Of a stretch of 64,000 bases of DNA, positions 736 through 7,648 are shown piece by piece; position 1 is the stretch's first letter; every line of letters starts with the position of its first letter. The notes beneath the pieces were generated by a model. The model made no database searches, was not told the origin of the DNA, and saw only the letters and a list, made by a program, of their open reading frames with translations. A program made the position numbers and the translations under genes. This DNA is from Chloracidobacterium thermophilum B. GTDB taxonomy: Bacteria > Acidobacteriota > Blastocatellia > Chloracidobacteriales > Chloracidobacteriaceae. The stretch covers positions 248,001-312,000 of the forward strand of contig NC_016025.1 of the NCBI RefSeq assembly GCF_000226295.1. The letters run 5' to 3'.

Positions 736-855
736 CGGTTGGCCTGACGGCTGGCGACGCACCCGGCGCGGACTGCCCTTCTGTCCTTGCGCGGCCCGGC
801 ACCAAATTTGTAGCTTCAGCATTCGGATGTGGTGTGTCACTGCGACAGATACTGA

Positions 856-1179
856 TCAGCCAGCGGGGATGTCGCCGGGATGCAGCCGGTCAGCGACCCC
901 GACAACTTCATCACCACGGAAGGAACCTTCTACTCCTGGGTCAGGGACACAACCGGCCAGCACGAAAGTGCGCCGCCCGTACGGTGGCTCGCCGACCTGA
1001 AAATCCGCCACCAGGTTGAACCCGCCGGAGATGTGCGGCTGGTTCGCCTCGAAGCCACACCACGGGCTGAGCTGTACTTCACTCTGGACGGCTCCAATCC
1101 CAGAGACGGCGGCGCTACGACGGTCCCTTCAAGATTGGTCCGCAAGCCTGCCGCCTGCTGGTGAAGGTTGGAGAAAAAA
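856..1179 (+). pseudogene. Decayed C-terminal remnant of a DUF499-like defence ATPase
   Basis: This frame has no start that would give a complete protein; it opens after an in-frame stop at 853-855. It encodes a C-terminal domain with the motif YFTLDGSNP (about 1075-1101), a chitobiase/FN3-like signature. From memory, DUF499 proteins of DUF499/DUF1156/DUF3780 phage-defence loci end with such a domain. Near 1115 the coding continues one frame back as YDGPFKIGPQ and then reaches the A-run at 1174-1179, where frame is lost again. Only a short tail of a protein normally around 1000 residues is left, so the gene is certainly non-functional if the identification is right. The DUF1156 methyltransferase downstream supports it. 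Confidence 0.5.
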
Positions 1180-1495
1180 TCCCGTGGATCGCCTGCTTGG
1201 CGAGGAACTGTGTGTCCTCGCCTGGGCTGTGGAGCGGATGAACCTTGACCGGATTCCCGTGGCCGTACGTAACCGGGTGGCGCTGCGGCCTGAAGAACGC
1301 TGGTGGTTGTTTGGCATGACCGCCATGGGCACGGGGGGAGTGCTGGATGCCGGCAGGGGCTGGCGCGCTGCGCTGGAGCATGCGCTGGGGGATGTCGTCC
1401 AGAGCGAGATGCTGGAAATCCGTGCCCACCGCAGCCAGCGTTTGCATGAAGACAGCCAGCCCCGGCTGAACCTGTTTGGCGATGACCCCCTATGA
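1180..1495 (+). pseudogene. Decayed C-terminal remnant resembling DUF3780 protein
   Basis: The frame mod-3 = 2 here encodes a compact helical segment with LGEELCVLAWAVE, then LRPEERWWLFGMTAMG and GRGWRAALEHALG. From memory this matches the C-terminal end of anti-phage-associated DUF3780 proteins (PEERWWL..MT followed by GRGWRKA). The N-terminal part is missing: the segment is joined at the A-run 1174-1179 to the DUF499-like tail, as expected from a deletion that fused two neighbouring genes. Its stop overlaps the darT start (ATGA, 1492-1495), so ribosomes finishing this fragment could still feed darT translation. A small functional gene starting at an internal codon cannot be excluded. Confidence 0.45.
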
Positions 1496-2148
1496 CCAGC
1501 GTCCGCGTACCGGAAGAACCCAGGACTTACCACATCGCCCACATTGATCGTCTGGCATCCATCGTTGCCGACAAGTACCTCTGGTGCGATGCAGAAGTGA
1601 TATGCCGTGGGCTTGCAGGTACGAACATTGGCATGAGCAGCATCAAGCAGCGGCGATTGATGCTGGCGCTGGATAGTTACCCTGACCTGTGTGTGGGGGA
1701 CTGTGTGCCGTTCTACTTCTGCCCGCGCTCCGTAATGCTGTATGTGATTTATCGAGGTGAGCATCCGGAACTGGATTATGACGGCGGGCAGGAACCAATC
1801 CTGCATTTCGAGGCCAAGCTGCGTGTTGCCGTCGCCTGGGCGCACAAGTGCGGGCGGAGGTGGGTGTTCACGCTCTCGAACGCCGGTTCGACCAACTTTG
1901 AGGAACGCTGTGACCTGGCGCACCTTGATGAGATTAACTGGGCGGCTGTTCAAGCCCGAGATTGGCGGCGGTGCAAGGAAGAGAAACAGGCTGAGTTTCT
2001 GACGGAGTACAACTTCCCCTGGCGCCTGATGGATCGCATCGGTGTGTTTGATCACACGATCCGTCAGCAAGTCCTGGAAGTCCTGAACAGGGTGTCGCCA
2101 AGGGGCCATTGGCCGCGGGTTGAGGTCCGCCGTGACTGGTACTACTGA
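1492..2148 (+). CDS. darT: DarT-like DNA ADP-ribosyltransferase toxin
   Basis: DarT enzymes (DUF4433) use NAD+ to attach ADP-ribose to bases in single-stranded DNA and so block replication; they act as toxins and in phage defence. The 218-residue protein has the family layout: N-terminal TYHIAHIDRLASI (residues 12-24) for NAD+ binding, GDCVPFYFCPRSVMLYVI (69-86), and the catalytic glutamate region KQAEFLTEYNFPW with E168. All look intact. Length is normal for the family. The ATG overlaps the stop of the upstream remnant (ATGA). The cognate antitoxin gene follows after 31 bases. Which base and motif it modifies cannot be told from sequence. Confidence 0.93.
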   Translation: MTSVRVPEEPRTYHIAHIDRLASIVADKYLWCDAEVICRGLAGTNIGMSSIKQRRLMLALDSYPDLCVGDCVPFYFCPRSVMLYVIYRGEHPELDYDGGQEPILHFEAKLRVAVAWAHKCGRRWVFTLSNAGSTNFEERCDLAHLDEINWAAVQARDWRRCKEEKQAEFLTEYNFPWRLMDRIGVFDHTIRQQVLEVLNRVSPRGHWPRVEVRRDWYY

Positions 2149-2179
2149 CAGCAAGGGCAACGAAAGGAAGGCTGCTGTG

Positions 2180-3520
2180 ATGGAGTTCACTTCGGGCGAC
2201 CTCCTCAAGTGTGAGGCAGAGGCGCTGGTCAACACGGTCAACTGTGTCGGCGTGATGGGACGGGGAATCGCCCTGCACTTCAGGCAGGCCTTTCCTGAGA
2301 ACTTCAAGGCTTACGAAGCTGCATGCCAGCGCGAAGCCGTGCAGCCGGGCCGCATGTTCGTCTTTGAGACGGGGCAGCTCACGCCGCCGCGCTTCATCAT
2401 CAACTTTCCCACGAAGCGCCACTGGCGCAGCAAGAGCCGTATTGAGGACATCGAGGCGGGCCTTGGCGATCTGGTCAAGGTCATCCGCGACAGGAACATC
2501 CGCTCCATCGCCATTCCGCCGCTGGGATGCGGCCTGGGTGGCCTGGACTGGAATGATGTCCGCCCCCGCATCGAGCAGGCACTGGCTTCCCTGACGGATG
2601 TGCATGTGCTCATCTTTGAACCAGACGGTGCACCGACTACCGACAGAATGCCCCATGCGCGCGAAGTGCCAACCATGACCACTGGCCGCGCGGCGATGGT
2701 CAGGCTGATGCAGCGGTATCTTGATGGCTTGCCCGATTCTTTCATCACCCTGCTGGAAGCGCACAGGCTGATGTACTTCATGCAGGCGGCCGGCGAACCG
2801 CTGCGCCTGAACTATGTCAGGCATCATTACGGCCCCTATGCCGAAAATCTGCACCACGTCCTGCGTGCTGTTGAAGGCTATCTGATTGCCGGTTATGCCG
2901 ACGGTGGCGACAGAGCGAACAAGCCGCTGAGGCTGGTTCCCGGCGCGATTGAGGAAGCCACGGACTTCCTCGACCGCCATCCCGAAAGCCGGGCGCGCCT
3001 TGAGCGTGTCAGCCGTCTCATTGAAGGATTTGAGTCGTCTGATGGGCTTGGGTTGCTCTCGACGGTGCACTGGGTCATGACGCAGGAGGGTGCGCATCAT
3101 CCCGACGATGTGGTTGCGCGTGTTCACGCCTGGAATCCGCCTAAGCGCTGCCGGTTTTCGCCGGAGCAAATGGAGGCCGCGATACGCCGCCTTCAGGAAC
3201 AACAGTGGATTGAGGCCGGATGCCAGCCCCATGTCGGGCCCCATGTTGGGAATGGGGAGGAAGCTCCAGGGGAAGCCGCGTCGCCGACCACTGCCTTGAC
3301 ACCGGATGAAAAAAGCCTGGCGCAAGACTGGCTGCGTCCCGGGGAGGATGAGGCAGGGACGCATTTGGACTGCTTGGCCAGCTATCAGCCGCAAACCGAA
3401 CTGGGCAGGAAGCTTATGGAGTTGCGTCAAGCCTATATTGCCCAGGGTGGACAGCTACTCTCTGCCGATGAGGTGTGCGCTGAAATCTGCGCCCGACGTG
3501 GTGGTGTAGGCGATGCCTAA
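2180..3520 (+). CDS. darG: DarG-like macrodomain antitoxin with extra C-terminal antitoxin-like domain
   Basis: DarG removes ADP-ribose from DNA and also binds DarT. Start 2180 is chosen over an upstream in-frame start because AAAGGAAGG precedes it and the macrodomain begins at MEFTSGDLL. Residues 1-155 are the macrodomain, with NTVNCVG, the lysine-containing TKRHWR and the glycine loop PPLGCGLGGLDW. Residues about 170-343 match the DarG DarT-binding region (RYLDGLP, RLNYVRHHYGPYAENLHHVL). The remaining ~100 residues are unusual for DarG: a linker and then ELGRKLMELRQAYIAQGG with LLSADEVCAEI..RRGG (about 405-444). That resembles the short antitoxins that normally precede PIN toxins. The stop overlaps the PIN gene by 8 bases, so the fused tail probably serves that toxin. 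Confidence 0.9.
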   Translation: MEFTSGDLLKCEAEALVNTVNCVGVMGRGIALHFRQAFPENFKAYEAACQREAVQPGRMFVFETGQLTPPRFIINFPTKRHWRSKSRIEDIEAGLGDLVKVIRDRNIRSIAIPPLGCGLGGLDWNDVRPRIEQALASLTDVHVLIFEPDGAPTTDRMPHAREVPTMTTGRAAMVRLMQRYLDGLPDSFITLLEAHRLMYFMQAAGEPLRLNYVRHHYGPYAENLHHVLRAVEGYLIAGYADGGDRANKPLRLVPGAIEEATDFLDRHPESRARLERVSRLIEGFESSDGLGLLSTVHWVMTQEGAHHPDDVVARVHAWNPPKRCRFSPEQMEAAIRRLQEQQWIEAGCQPHVGPHVGNGEEAPGEAASPTTALTPDEKSLAQDWLRPGEDEAGTHLDCLASYQPQTELGRKLMELRQAYIAQGGQLLSADEVCAEICARRGGVGDA

Positions 3521-3920
3521 GCGAACTTACGTTGACACTTCCGTGCTGGTGGCAGCCTTCAAGGGGCAGGGCGAAATAGGGCAACGGGCGCTGAGCGTGC
3601 TGGATGACCCGGAACGCACGCTGGTTGTCAGTGACGCGGTGCGCCTGGAGGCATTGCCTATGGCCCACTATCACCGGCAGCCGCAGGAAGCCGCTTTTTA
3701 CGAGGCCGTGTTCAGCCGGGCTGAAAACATTGCCTGGAATGTTTCAGCCTTGGAGCAGGCGCAAAACATTGCCGAAGCCTACGGCATCGCTGCCATGGAG
3801 GCTGTCCACATTGCCCATGCCATAGCCGCAGAGGTGGATGAATTCATGAGCGCCGGGAAACCAACCAAGCCCATGTTCCGGGTGACTGGTATCTGCATGC
3901 GTTCAATCCGGGATGCTTGA
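3513..3920 (+). CDS. PIN-domain (VapC-like) putative ribonuclease toxin
   Basis: This 135-residue protein has the PIN fold signature: YVDTSVLVAAF with D8, RLEAL with E46, the AMEAVHIAHA helix with E96, and VDEF with D109 before KPTKPMFR. PIN toxins cut RNA with a Mg2+ site made of three or four acidic residues. E96 stands where most relatives have Asp (A-x-D-A-L-H), a conservative change that may keep metal binding. The gene starts inside darG (8-base overlap), and no separate antitoxin gene lies before it; the antitoxin-like stretch is at the DarG C-terminus. The stop nearly touches the next gene, so all four genes appear cotranscribed. Target RNA is unknown. Confidence 0.85.
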   Translation: MPKRTYVDTSVLVAAFKGQGEIGQRALSVLDDPERTLVVSDAVRLEALPMAHYHRQPQEAAFYEAVFSRAENIAWNVSALEQAQNIAEAYGIAAMEAVHIAHAIAAEVDEFMSAGKPTKPMFRVTGICMRSIRDA

Positions 3921-3922
3921 AC

Positions 3923-6889
3923 ATGGACTCCCAAGTGAAGACAACCCTCACCCCGCTGGTGCTCAGGGGCGCCCCAGCGCTGATTGAAACCGTCTTCCCG
4001 GCGCAGAAGGTTTCCTTCGAGGCACAGGCGGAACGCAAGGCCGTTGCGGCGCAGACCTTGACATGTCTCGGCTCCTACTGGAAGGGCAGAAAGCCCCTGA
4101 TCCTTGTGCGCACCATCGTGCTGGGCTGCCTTCTGCCCCCTACGGACGACACCGAAGCCGACCTCGATGTGTTCGAGCGGTTGCTGGCCTTCGATGACGA
4201 AGGGCTGGCCCGCCGGGCGCTCGCCGCCAACGCCTTCTCCGCCGCCAGACTCCAGGAAATGCTGACCATCCGCGACCCGGAACGCTACTTCAGCGGACGC
4301 GGCTGGCGACGGGACCTCACGGATGACGACAAACTCACCCTCTACCGCCGGGCGCTGGCCACCCTTGGGAGCTACGAAGCCAAAGCCAGCCTCGGCAAGC
4401 GCCCCGAAGAAGTCAATCCCGACTGGCTCTACGCCCCGGTCTGGCCCGTCGTCAACCGCCACTACGCGCACCTTGGCATCGAGGCGCATTCGTTCCCGGA
4501 ACTCATCGAGCAACTGGGCATCCTGCGCTACGGCCATCGCCCGCGTGTCGGCGACACCTTCTGCGGCGGCGGCTCCATTCCGTTCGAGGCGGCGCGGCTG
4601 GGCTGTGATGTCTATGCCAGCGACCTGAACCCGGTAGCCTGCATGCTCACCTGGGGGGCGCTCAACATCATCGGCGCCAGTCCCGAACGCCGGGCCGAAA
4701 TCGAGCAGGCGCAACGCGAAGTGGCCGCCGCAGTGGATGCCGAGATTACCCGGCTGGGCATCGAGCACGATGAGCAGGGCAACCGCGCCAAGGCCTATCT
4801 CTACTGCCTGGAAACGCGCTGCCCGGAAACCGGCTGGCTGGTGCCGCTTGCGCCCTCGTGGGTCATTTCCAGAACACGCCGTGTCATCGCCCGCCTCAAG
4901 CCCGATCACGCCGGCAAACGCTTTGACATCGGGATTGTCAGTGGTGTGAGCGAAAGGGAACTCAAAGCCGCCGAGCGCGGCACGGTGCAGGATGGCGAGA
5001 TGGTCTATCAGCTTGATGGCAAAACCTACCGCACGCCGATCAAGACCCTGCGCGGCGACTACCGGCTGCCCGACGGATCAACTGCCAACCGCCTGCGCCG
5101 CTGGGAGAAAACCGATTTCAAGCCCCGGCCGGACGACATCTTCCAGGAGCGGCTCTACTGCATCCAGTGGATCATGCGGGGCGGACAGGCGGAGGGCCGT
5201 CCGCCCGCTGCCCGGCAGGAAACCTTCTTTGCCGCGCCGACCGAGGCCGATCTGGAGCGCGAGCGCCGCGTGGAAGCCATCGTGGCTGAGAACCTTGCGC
5301 GCTGGCAGGCCGACGGACTCGTGCCCGACATGCCTATTGAGCCGGGTGACAAGACCGATGAACCGATCCGTACGCGCGGCTGGACGTATTGGCATCATTT
5401 GTTCAACGCACGGCAGTTGTTATCAATGGCGCTGACGATCCAAGAATGGCGAACCTCACAAGTGGCTAATGTAGGCTGGATCAACATAGCCAAGATGCTG
5501 AATTTCTACGCCAAGCTTTGTCAGTGGTTGCCGACCCAAGGCGAAGGTGGCCCTAAGCACGTTTTCTACAACCAGGCACTCAACGTTTTTTACAACTACG
5601 CCGTGCGAGGCTTTGTTCGATTCACACCAGATTTCTTCGAGTTAAGTAGGGTGACGATGCCGGATGTAAAGCGCGAGATCGTCTCTGTCCCAGCCAATCA
5701 TCCTCAACAGCACTGCGAATTCTGGATCGCCGACCCACCCTACGCCGACGCCGTCAACTACCACGAGATCACCGAATTCTTCATTGCCTGGCTGAGGAAG
5801 AATCCGCCCGTTCCCTTCGATGCGTGGGTCTGGGACTCGCGCCGGGCGCTCGCCATCAAGGGTTCCGGCGCGGAGTTCCGGCGCGGCATGGTGGCCGCCT
5901 ACCGGGCCATGGCCGCGCACATGCCTGACAACGGCGTGCAGTGCGTCATGTTCACGCACCAGGACACCGGCGTGTGGAGTGATCTCATCGCGATTTTCTG
6001 GGCGGCGGGACTGCAGGTGGCGGCCGCGTGGTACATCGCCACGGAGACCACTTCCGAACTCAAGCAGGGCGGCTACGTACAGGGGACGGTCATCCTGATT
6101 CTCAGGAAGCGCGCCCCCGGCGAGCGGCAAGGGTTCAGGCAGCGGCTTCTGCCCGAGGTACGGCAGGAAGTGCAGCGGCAGATGGAAACCATGCTGCACC
6201 TGAACGAACGGGTGGCGGCGCAGCATGGCGCGCCGGTGTGGAATGACGCCGACCTGCAGATGGCGGGCTATGCGGCGGTGCTGAAAGTGCTGACGGCCTG
6301 CACACACATCGGCGGCGAGGAGGTGACGACCTTTGCCCTGCGCCCGCGTGCCCGGGGGGAAGTGACGGTTGTGGATGACATGGTGCAACAGGCGGCGGAG
6401 ACCGCCTCGAACCTTCTGGTGCCGGAAGGTCTGTCGCCGGACACTTGGGGCCGTCTCACCGGCATCGAGCGGTTCTACTGCCGCATGCTGGAGATGGAAG
6501 CGGCTGGCGCGCGCAAGCTCGACAACTACCAGAACTTTGCCAAGGCCTTTCACGTGGGGGACTACAGTCAGGTGATGGGCGATATGCGCCCGAATCAGGC
6601 GCGTGTGAAGCGCGTCAGTGAATTTGCCGGACGTGATTTGACCGAGGCGACGGAACTGGGGCGCAGCCGGCTGGGGCGGCTCATTCTGGGTTTGCAGCAG
6701 ATGCTCCGGGAGACTGAGGCGCGGGTTGTTGTGGAGCAGTTCAAGCGGGAGATGGACGATTTTCTGGACGTACGCCTGCTGCTGGCGGAGGTGTCGGCGT
6801 TTCTGGCGCGCAAGTCACCGGAGCAGCCCGTACGCGAGGCGGCCGAGGTCCTGGCCGCGCGGCTGAAGAATCTGCGCTTTGGCGAGTGA
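3923..6889 (+). CDS. DUF1156 DNA methyltransferase of a phage-defence locus
   Basis: The 988-residue protein starts with a DUF1156-type segment (IETVFPAQKVSFEAQAERK, about residues 18-36) and contains a class I methyltransferase core. Motif I is GDTFCGGGSIPFEAARLG with ASDLNPVA near residues 207-240; the catalytic DPPY motif of amino-methyltransferases (WIADPPYADAVNYHE) is near residue 600. Motif I therefore precedes the catalytic motif with a long insert between, as in this family. It should methylate adenine N6 or cytosine N4 in DNA. ATG 3923 is preferred; a TTG six bases earlier is possible. Its usual partners DUF499 and DUF3780 are only remnants upstream, so it may now act as an orphan methylase. 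Bases 5420-5720 look lower in GC than their surroundings. Confidence 0.85.
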   Translation: MDSQVKTTLTPLVLRGAPALIETVFPAQKVSFEAQAERKAVAAQTLTCLGSYWKGRKPLILVRTIVLGCLLPPTDDTEADLDVFERLLAFDDEGLARRALAANAFSAARLQEMLTIRDPERYFSGRGWRRDLTDDDKLTLYRRALATLGSYEAKASLGKRPEEVNPDWLYAPVWPVVNRHYAHLGIEAHSFPELIEQLGILRYGHRPRVGDTFCGGGSIPFEAARLGCDVYASDLNPVACMLTWGALNIIGASPERRAEIEQAQREVAAAVDAEITRLGIEHDEQGNRAKAYLYCLETRCPETGWLVPLAPSWVISRTRRVIARLKPDHAGKRFDIGIVSGVSERELKAAERGTVQDGEMVYQLDGKTYRTPIKTLRGDYRLPDGSTANRLRRWEKTDFKPRPDDIFQERLYCIQWIMRGGQAEGRPPAARQETFFAAPTEADLERERRVEAIVAENLARWQADGLVPDMPIEPGDKTDEPIRTRGWTYWHHLFNARQLLSMALTIQEWRTSQVANVGWINIAKMLNFYAKLCQWLPTQGEGGPKHVFYNQALNVFYNYAVRGFVRFTPDFFELSRVTMPDVKREIVSVPANHPQQHCEFWIADPPYADAVNYHEITEFFIAWLRKNPPVPFDAWVWDSRRALAIKGSGAEFRRGMVAAYRAMAAHMPDNGVQCVMFTHQDTGVWSDLIAIFWAAGLQVAAAWYIATETTSELKQGGYVQGTVILILRKRAPGERQGFRQRLLPEVRQEVQRQMETMLHLNERVAAQHGAPVWNDADLQMAGYAAVLKVLTACTHIGGEEVTTFALRPRARGEVTVVDDMVQQAAETASNLLVPEGLSPDTWGRLTGIERFYCRMLEMEAAGARKLDNYQNFAKAFHVGDYSQVMGDMRPNQARVKRVSEFAGRDLTEATELGRSRLGRLILGLQQMLRETEARVVVEQFKREMDDFLDVRLLLAEVSAFLARKSPEQPVREAAEVLAARLKNLRFGE

Positions 6890-6901
6890 GGTTTGGAGGC
6901 G

Positions 6902-7558
6902 ATGACCATCCGCCGTTTTTCTTCGCGTACCCAGCGGCTTGATGTCAGTTTTCTGCTGCGGCATCTCCGGGGCGCGCGCAGTTACATGCGCATTGCGGGC
7001 TATTTCACGAGTTCGTTGTTTGAGGTGGCCGGCGAAGTTCTGGAGGACATTCCCGACGTGCGGATTGTCTGCAACGTGGACATTCACCCGGACGATCTGA
7101 AAGTGGCGCAGCTTCGGGAAAGCCGGATGCTGGGCCGCTGGAACGAGCGCGCGCTGGAGGCCGAAACGCTGCTGCACCGGGAGCGGTACCGCCGTCTGGA
7201 TGCCTTTCTGCAAAGACACGGGCAGTCTGTCCGCGTGGCCCCGGATGACCTTTGCGGTTTTGTGCACGGCAAGGCCGGCGTCATCACTCTGGCTGATGGC
7301 CGCAAGCTGGGCTTCATGGGTTCGATGAACGAGACCCGCAGCGGCTGGCAGCGACACTATGAAATCCTGTGGGAGGATGAATCGCCGGAGGGGGTGGCCT
7401 GGATTGAAGCGGAGTTTGAATTCCTCTGGCAGGCGGCCGGCAAACCGCAGCACACTACCCGGCGGGGCAGAAAAACCGCCCCGATTTCCCAAAACCGGCT
7501 ACATAGTGGCTACATCGTTTGGCTGCGACTGCGTTTGCTGCTTTTGAACTCTCCGTAA
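6902..7558 (+). CDS. PLD-like (HKD) nuclease-family protein, C-terminus apparently truncated
   Basis: The start is ATG 6902 behind GGAGG, 12 bases after the methyltransferase stop, so both are probably one transcript. The protein (218 residues) resembles the phospholipase-D-like proteins found in defence loci: RSYMRIAGYFTSSLFEVAG near the N-terminus, and one HxK motif, FVHGKAGVITL, followed by GFMGSMNETRSGW. Such proteins commonly dimerise to pair two HKD motifs and cut DNA. Family-like sequence stops near residue 183; the last ~35 residues are basic then leucine-rich and end 14 bases before tRNA-Phe. This looks like a tail replaced at an island junction. The helicase often found with this family is absent. 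Confidence 0.75.
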   Translation: MTIRRFSSRTQRLDVSFLLRHLRGARSYMRIAGYFTSSLFEVAGEVLEDIPDVRIVCNVDIHPDDLKVAQLRESRMLGRWNERALEAETLLHRERYRRLDAFLQRHGQSVRVAPDDLCGFVHGKAGVITLADGRKLGFMGSMNETRSGWQRHYEILWEDESPEGVAWIEAEFEFLWQAAGKPQHTTRRGRKTAPISQNRLHSGYIVWLRLRLLLLNSP

Positions 7559-7572
7559 ACTGTTGATTTTGT

Positions 7573-7648
<76 letters not shown>

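What the first reader, a model, noticed from the sequence alone, without database searches (positions are those of the whole stretch)
2180..3920. DarG antitoxin fused to a second antitoxin-like domain that precedes a PIN toxin
DarG carries ~100 extra C-terminal residues. The last ~40 (ELGRKLMELRQAYIAQGG, then LLSADEVCAEI..RRGG) look like the short antitoxins that precede VapC/PIN toxins. A PIN gene starts 8 bases inside darG and has no other antitoxin gene. One protein may therefore hold two unrelated toxins in check: DarT on DNA and a PIN nuclease on RNA. Loss or inactivation of DarG would release both at once, a possible two-stage abortive defence.
Basis: partly seen in the sequence, partly recalled or inferred. 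Interest (0 to 1): 0.82.

Follow-up and report, generated by a model that had tools for sequence, protein, structure and literature searches.

The report
DarG fused to a second antitoxin peptide
In one bacterial genome the DarG antitoxin carries, at its end, the toxin-binding piece of a different antitoxin and is followed by that piece's toxin gene, so one protein may guard two toxins, although the second toxin looks partly worn out.

Summary
DarG (2180-3520) has a canonical core ending near residue 340 plus a 105-residue tail. Tail residues 402-444 match a profile of 24 stand-alone antitoxins from PIN-toxin pairs (51 bits; best of 2000 shuffled tails 5.1). Such pairs occur in Acidobacteriota, cyanobacteria and one viral contig, and their PINs are homologous to the window's PIN (3513-3920). 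None of 114 other complete DarG frames has this tail. The peptide is modular: stand-alone versions carry DUF2281, AF2212-like or a large unknown N-terminal part; DarG is one more carrier. The tail also holds a remnant shared with an antitoxin-like gene in a sister species (88% DNA identity over 60 bases).

The locus is a decayed Type-2 BREX-related operon. In 12 of 80 related DarG loci the order is DUF499-DUF3780-DarT-DarG-DUF1156 without PIN, so the PIN module is an insertion.

Against the two-toxin idea: this PIN alone among 22 aligned PINs has changed two conserved acids (D96E, E115G) and departs most from the family. That DarG binds PIN is likely; a live second toxin is doubtful; joint release in defence is untested. 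Modelling tail plus PIN failed (pTM 0.22).

The parts
850..1162 (+). Remnant of the DUF499 gene (C-terminal part)
   Evidence: 91% DNA identity to L091 6286-6599, inside the DUF499 gene of sister species G157
1163..1495 (+). Remnant of DUF3780 gene, frame runs on from the DUF499 remnant
   Evidence: 92% DNA identity to L091 7391-7737; Pfam DUF3780 5e-35 over positions 87-181 of 184
1492..2148 (+). DarT toxin, ssDNA thymidine ADP-ribosyltransferase
   Evidence: Pfam DarT 1.9e-54, NCBIfam DarT 220 bits over cut-off 150; departs at 2 of 54 conserved columns
2180..3211 (+). DarG core, residues 1-344: macrodomain and DarT-binding domain
   Evidence: NCBIfam DarG residues 1-338; homologous to solved DarG macrodomains 5m3i, 5m31 and DarG chain 7yk3_B
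3212..3382 (+). Linker, residues 345-401, predicted mostly with low confidence
   Evidence: AlphaFold2 segment 348-402 with pLDDT below 50
3308..3367 (+). Remnant of a second antitoxin end (MazE-like by inference), residues 377-396
   Evidence: 88% identical over 60 bases to the end of an antitoxin-like ORF in the same slot of sister species G157, upstream of a weak PemK-like ORF
3383..3511 (+). PIN-binding antitoxin peptide, residues 402-444 of DarG
   Evidence: 51.1 bits to a profile of 24 stand-alone antitoxins that precede PIN genes
3513..3920 (+). PIN-domain gene, partner toxin of the peptide; D96E and E115G changes
   Evidence: Pfam PIN 1.2e-8; family alignment
3923..6889 (+). DUF1156 N6-adenine methyltransferase of the BREX-related operon
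   Evidence: NCBIfam NF042963 1363.6 bits; 96% DNA identity to sister species over 3945-6891; start ATG 3923 read from the sequence
6893..7558 (+). Truncated HKD/PLD-helicase (residues 1-178 of an 895-position family)
   Evidence: NCBIfam NF042964 272 of 1100 bits needed; similarity to the sister gene stops at 7451; tRNA-Phe at 7573-7648

Best explanation
A two-gene PIN toxin-antitoxin module entered a Type-2 BREX-related operon between darG and the DUF1156 methyltransferase gene. Its antitoxin gene lost its own N-terminal half and was joined in frame to darG, so that DarG now ends in a disordered linker plus the short helical peptide that in relatives neutralises the neighbouring PIN protein. 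DarG should therefore bind two unrelated partners: DarT through its core and PIN through its tail; coupling of the two genes (8-base overlap) would keep PIN translation tied to DarG. Shown: sequence identity of the peptide, its place beside PIN, its absence from other DarG, the ancestral operon without PIN. Inferred: binding and neutralisation. The PIN has changed two of the putative catalytic acids, so I expect a weak or dead nuclease; the tail then restrains a weak toxin or is a recent relic of doing so.
For: Tail hits stand-alone antitoxins beside homologous PIN genes in 4 acidobacterial genomes and in 3 of 3 plasmid hits (with PIN hits). A search with the PIN alone found it in 28 of 292 cyanobacterial genomes; 22 of the 30 fetched loci have an immediately upstream ORF ending in this peptide and the other 8 hold only partial PIN frames. 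Profile 51.1 bits against 5.1 for the best of 2000 shuffles. The peptide sits on different N-terminal parts: DUF2281, AF2212-like, or an unknown ~180-residue part in 4 loci. 12 of 80 DarG loci have DUF499-DUF3780-DarT-DarG-DUF1156 without PIN. Model of DarG: linker with low confidence, two tail helices 407-421 and 429-439. Precedent: a toxin-binding peptide fused to SUMO neutralises its toxin (PMC10440598, passages).
Against: No binding or toxicity data. The model of tail plus PIN failed: mean pLDDT 39.9, pTM 0.22, only 3 aligned rows. PIN departs at 9 of 30 conserved columns, next most deviant row 5. The tail is also at the divergent end: 5 of 18 conserved columns changed, range 0-6 among 25. 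The DarG core is the most deviant of 81 rows (9 of 136 columns, median 2). The operon around it is broken. A single genome: 1 of 7 in the genus has DarG or PIN.
Confidence: 0.62

Rival explanations
1. Relic: the tail and PIN are the decaying remains of an inserted toxin-antitoxin pair. The fusion does no harm because the PIN is already inactive, and DarG works as an ordinary DarG.
For: PIN lost D96 and E115, which are D and E in the other 21 of 22 aligned PINs, and is the most deviant row. Alanine at each of the four acids abolished toxicity of a VapC in Bosea (PMC8522696, passages). Neighbouring DUF499, DUF3780 and helicase genes are truncated. The MazE-like remnant in the tail has lost residues shared by its sister copy (E to G, W to G).
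Against: Both frames are intact, the peptide still scores 51 bits, and D8, E46, E59 and E110 of PIN are unchanged; D to E at position 96 is conservative.
Confidence: 0.27
2. Internal start: a separate short antitoxin is translated from a start codon inside the 3' end of darG, and the fused form is a by-product.
For: In-frame TTG at 3365 after AGGGA and ATG at 3416 after AGGA; the first would give the whole peptide. Relatives use free antitoxins of 78-97 residues.
Against: The Shine-Dalgarno-like matches are weak, and start from ATG 3416 would drop the conserved LG..KL part; no transcript or peptide data.
Confidence: 0.07
3. Artefact: a sequencing error removed a stop codon or frameshift that separates darG from a free antitoxin gene.
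For: Only one genome carries the arrangement, and no second isolate could be checked.
Against: The frame is open for 105 codons beyond the core, the joined antitoxin lacks its N-terminal half, so a single error cannot restore a stand-alone gene of the usual form; the genome is in 2 contigs, 99.99% complete.
Confidence: 0.03

Closest known systems
DarTG toxin-antitoxin system
   Same: DarT and the DarG core match the curated families well above their cut-offs.
   Different: Extra C-terminal 105 residues with a second antitoxin peptide; 0 of 114 other complete DarG frames have it.
VapBC-like PIN pairs with a C-terminal LGxxLxxIRxxIxxxG peptide (Acidobacteriota, cyanobacteria)
   Same: Homologous PIN, same peptide, same gene order, overlapping genes.
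   Different: The peptide is on DarG rather than on a small protein with its own N-terminal part; PIN has D96E and E115G.
Type-2 BREX-related (BR) systems: DUF499, DUF3780, DUF1156 methyltransferase, HKD-helicase (PMC12839542, passages)
   Same: Same gene set around DarTG; intact in sister species G157.
   Different: Here DUF499, DUF3780 and helicase are truncated and DarTG plus PIN lie inside the operon. The terms DarT, DarG and ADP-ribosyl do not occur in that paper's main text.
Modular antitoxins of the NetFlax/Panacea network (PMC10440598, passages)
   Same: Short toxin-binding peptide moved between carrier domains.
   Different: The carrier is itself a complete enzyme antitoxin for another toxin; that paper says DarTG escaped its prediction.

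Membership tests
DarTG | DarT homologue upstream of a macrodomain DarG | tested here: met
DarTG | DarG removes ADP-ribose from DNA and binds DarT | not testable with these tools
   Needs enzymes; the core matches solved DarG chains
PIN toxin-antitoxin pair (VapBC-like) | PIN-domain toxin gene | tested here: met
   Pfam PIN 36 bits over cut-off 23.6; NCBIfam VapC 20.3 bits, far below its cut-off of 80
PIN toxin-antitoxin pair (VapBC-like) | Cognate antitoxin encoded directly upstream | tested here: met
   Only as the fused peptide, residues 402-444 of DarG
PIN toxin-antitoxin pair (VapBC-like) | Conserved catalytic acids | tested here: not met
   D8 and E46 kept, D96 is E and E115 is G; in the other 21 of 22 rows they are D and E. 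That E115 is the fourth catalytic acid is inferred from its position
PIN toxin-antitoxin pair (VapBC-like) | Toxicity neutralised by antitoxin binding | tested here: inconclusive
   Model of tail plus PIN has pTM 0.22
Type-2 BR system | DUF499, DUF3780, DUF1156 methyltransferase and HKD-helicase genes | tested here: not met
   Only DUF1156 is whole in the window; all four are recognisable in sister G157

The most novel reading that the evidence does not exclude
One DarG protein is the working antitoxin of two unrelated toxins, a DNA ADP-ribosyltransferase and a PIN ribonuclease, inside a BREX-related operon; a phage that destroys or titrates DarG frees both, and the antitoxin peptide is a portable part that can be hung on any stable carrier.
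Probability: 0.25. Interest if true: 0.8.

Novelty: new variant of a known kind. Interest (0 to 1): 0.55.

Why it matters
It is a natural example of an antitoxin peptide captured by an enzyme that is already an antitoxin for another toxin. It supports the view that toxin-binding peptides are portable parts, gives a direct bench test of whether one protein can guard two unrelated toxins, and points to DarTG as a recurrent part of Type-2 BREX-related operons.

Tried and rejected
Structure: P0005 (tail read into PIN) was modelled with 3 rows and failed, so no fold search was run. Solved structures: PIN has no relative in the PDB by phmmer at E <= 0.1, and the profile of 16 PINs gave 5 matches, none a PIN. 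Viral contigs: PIN alone, a cyanobacterial PIN and the tail gave no relative; the PIN profile gave one locus, L161. Longer DarG matches in plasmids (3 of 74 records cover 80% or more): two of the three were opened and their annotated DarG has 347 and 352 residues, so the extra match is read past the stop; H25 was not opened. One phage DarG match covers residues 1-357 and was not followed. MazE-like label: the G157 antitoxin end has no plasmid match at E <= 1, its neighbour scores 17.2 bits to PemK, below the cut-off of 23.1, and the motif is recalled, so the label is inference. A first multiple alignment put antitoxins on PIN and was used only as a list of rows. Promoter and terminator scans of 1100-4100 are at chance. 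PMC10714953 was opened (outline and one section) and its toxin residues (K, H, F, E) do not bear on PIN.

Rows dropped: in the count of 114 DarG, matches not reaching query residue 330 were left out; 3 of the 114 are second copies of the same locus (L014/L163, L028/L162, L075/L171). In the PIN alignment of 22, PIN frames that were partial or interrupted were left out. In the 24-antitoxin profile, those of L005, L127, L146, L147-L149 and L159 were left out.

Full report
Observation. The window holds DarT (1492-2148), DarG (2180-3520) and PIN (3513-3920) on one strand; darG and PIN overlap by 8 bases. The window is part of a 3.70 Mb genome in 2 contigs; I think of Chloracidobacterium from memory, no call names it. 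DarG matches the curated DarG model over residues 1-338 and then runs on to residue 446. In 80 of the nearest DarG homologues fetched from genome contigs the protein ends within about 25 residues of that point; over a wider set of 114 complete DarG frames (80 nearest, 34 from phylum samples of 297, 292 and 398 genomes plus one further genome) the longest extension is 27 residues, and neither the antitoxin peptide nor the PIN is found in the fetched stretches at E <= 0.01.

What the tail is. A 46-residue tail query hit 6 of 296 other genomes. Four of the six are ORFs of 79-82 residues next to a PIN gene homologous to the window's. A PIN profile, used without the tail, rang in 28 of 292 cyanobacterial genomes. 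Of 30 fetched loci, 22 have an adjoining upstream ORF that ends in the same peptide, LGxxLxxIRxxIxxxGxxLLxxxEIExExAxRRGG; the other 8 hold partial PIN frames. The same pair lies on cyanobacterial plasmids and on one viral contig. A profile from 24 of these antitoxins gives DarG residues 402-444 51.1 bits, against 5.1 for the best of 2000 shuffled tails and no hit in 80 other DarG. The stand-alone antitoxins share the peptide but not the N-terminal part: DUF2281 in P0004, AF2212-like in L006, no Pfam family in L147. Four loci carry proteins of 216-230 residues that end in the peptide (L147, L148, L149, L159), so large carriers occur elsewhere too.

The rest of the tail. Residues 377-396 are encoded by 60 bases that are 88% identical to the end of an antitoxin-like ORF in the corresponding slot of sister genome G157. 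That ORF is followed by a weak PemK-like ORF (17.2 bits, cut-off 23.1). I read this as the relic of a second, MazE-like antitoxin end; the label is inference. The DarG model has low confidence at 348-402 and two helices at 407-421 and 429-439 with middling confidence.

The operon. In 12 of 80 DarG loci the gene order is DUF499, DUF3780, DarT, DarG, DUF1156, and 9 of those 12 also show the HKD-helicase in the fetched stretch. These are the genes of Type-2 BREX-related systems (PMC12839542, passages). In sister G157 the BR genes are recognisable around a slot without DarTG that keeps 20 bases matching the start of darT at 18 of 20; 4 of the 20 belong to the DUF3780 stop overlap. In the window DUF499 and DUF3780 are collapsed and the helicase stops after about 180 residues beside tRNA-Phe, while DUF1156 is whole. 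Thus DarTG is an old part of this operon, and the peptide plus PIN (about 3212-3920) were added between darG and DUF1156. Of 7 genomes of the genus only the window's holds the DarG core; the PIN is in 1 of 20 relatives searched.

Is the PIN active? Of 22 aligned PINs, the window's is the only one with E at position 96 (others D) and G at 115 (others E), and it departs at 9 of 30 conserved columns, against at most 5 for any other row. D8, E46, E59 and E110 are kept. In a Bosea VapC each of four acids was needed for toxicity (PMC8522696, passages). That position 115 is the fourth catalytic acid is my inference from its place in the family; no solved relative was found by sequence. For contrast, DarT departs at 2 of 54 columns; the DarG core departs at 9 of 136, the most of 81 rows, none of which I recognise as catalytic; its distance from the mostly proteobacterial set may explain part of that.

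Mechanism. Most likely DarG binds PIN through the tail, as the free antitoxins are presumed to do. A toxin-binding peptide fused to SUMO is known to neutralise its toxin (PMC10440598, passages), so the fusion needs no new principle. DarG is already described as dual in action, removing the DNA mark and binding DarT (PMC8832971, passages). Whether the PIN still does harm, and whether loss of DarG frees two toxins, is not shown. The joint model failed.

Literature. Full-text searches combining DarG/DarTG with PIN, DUF1156, VapC and fusion, C-terminal domain, antitoxin domain, BREX, and Chloracidobacterium with toxin-antitoxin listed no paper whose title or abstract start describes a DarG fused to a PIN antitoxin; only open-licence papers are held and most listed papers were not opened.

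Noticed in passing
L009, L011, L012, L014-L022: DarTG lies inside Type-2 BREX-related operons, between DUF3780 and DUF1156, in 12 of 80 DarG loci; the main text of the BR survey PMC12839542 has no occurrence of DarT or DarG.
   Followed up: partly
L147, L148, L149, L159 (upstream of PIN): Proteins of 216-230 residues with an unknown N-terminal part end in the same PIN-antitoxin peptide.
   Followed up: partly
window 850-1511 and 6893-7558: BREX-related core genes are truncated in this genome: DUF499 and DUF3780 collapsed, HKD-helicase cut next to tRNA-Phe 7573-7648.
   Followed up: yes
L091 7738-10695: The same slot in sister species G157 holds other genes: an unknown 246-aa ORF, an antitoxin-like ORF, a weak PemK-like ORF and further ORFs; the slot looks like an exchange site for toxin-antitoxin genes.
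   Followed up: partly
L128 8919-13940 (Geminocystis plasmid pGM01): The same PIN pair lies downstream of a DUF1156 protein related to the window's (3.8e-27), with a HicA gene between.
   Followed up: partly
L092, window coordinates about -10612 to -2189 (left of the window): Three similar ~500-aa ORFs with a secreted-looking start in near-tandem.
   Followed up: no
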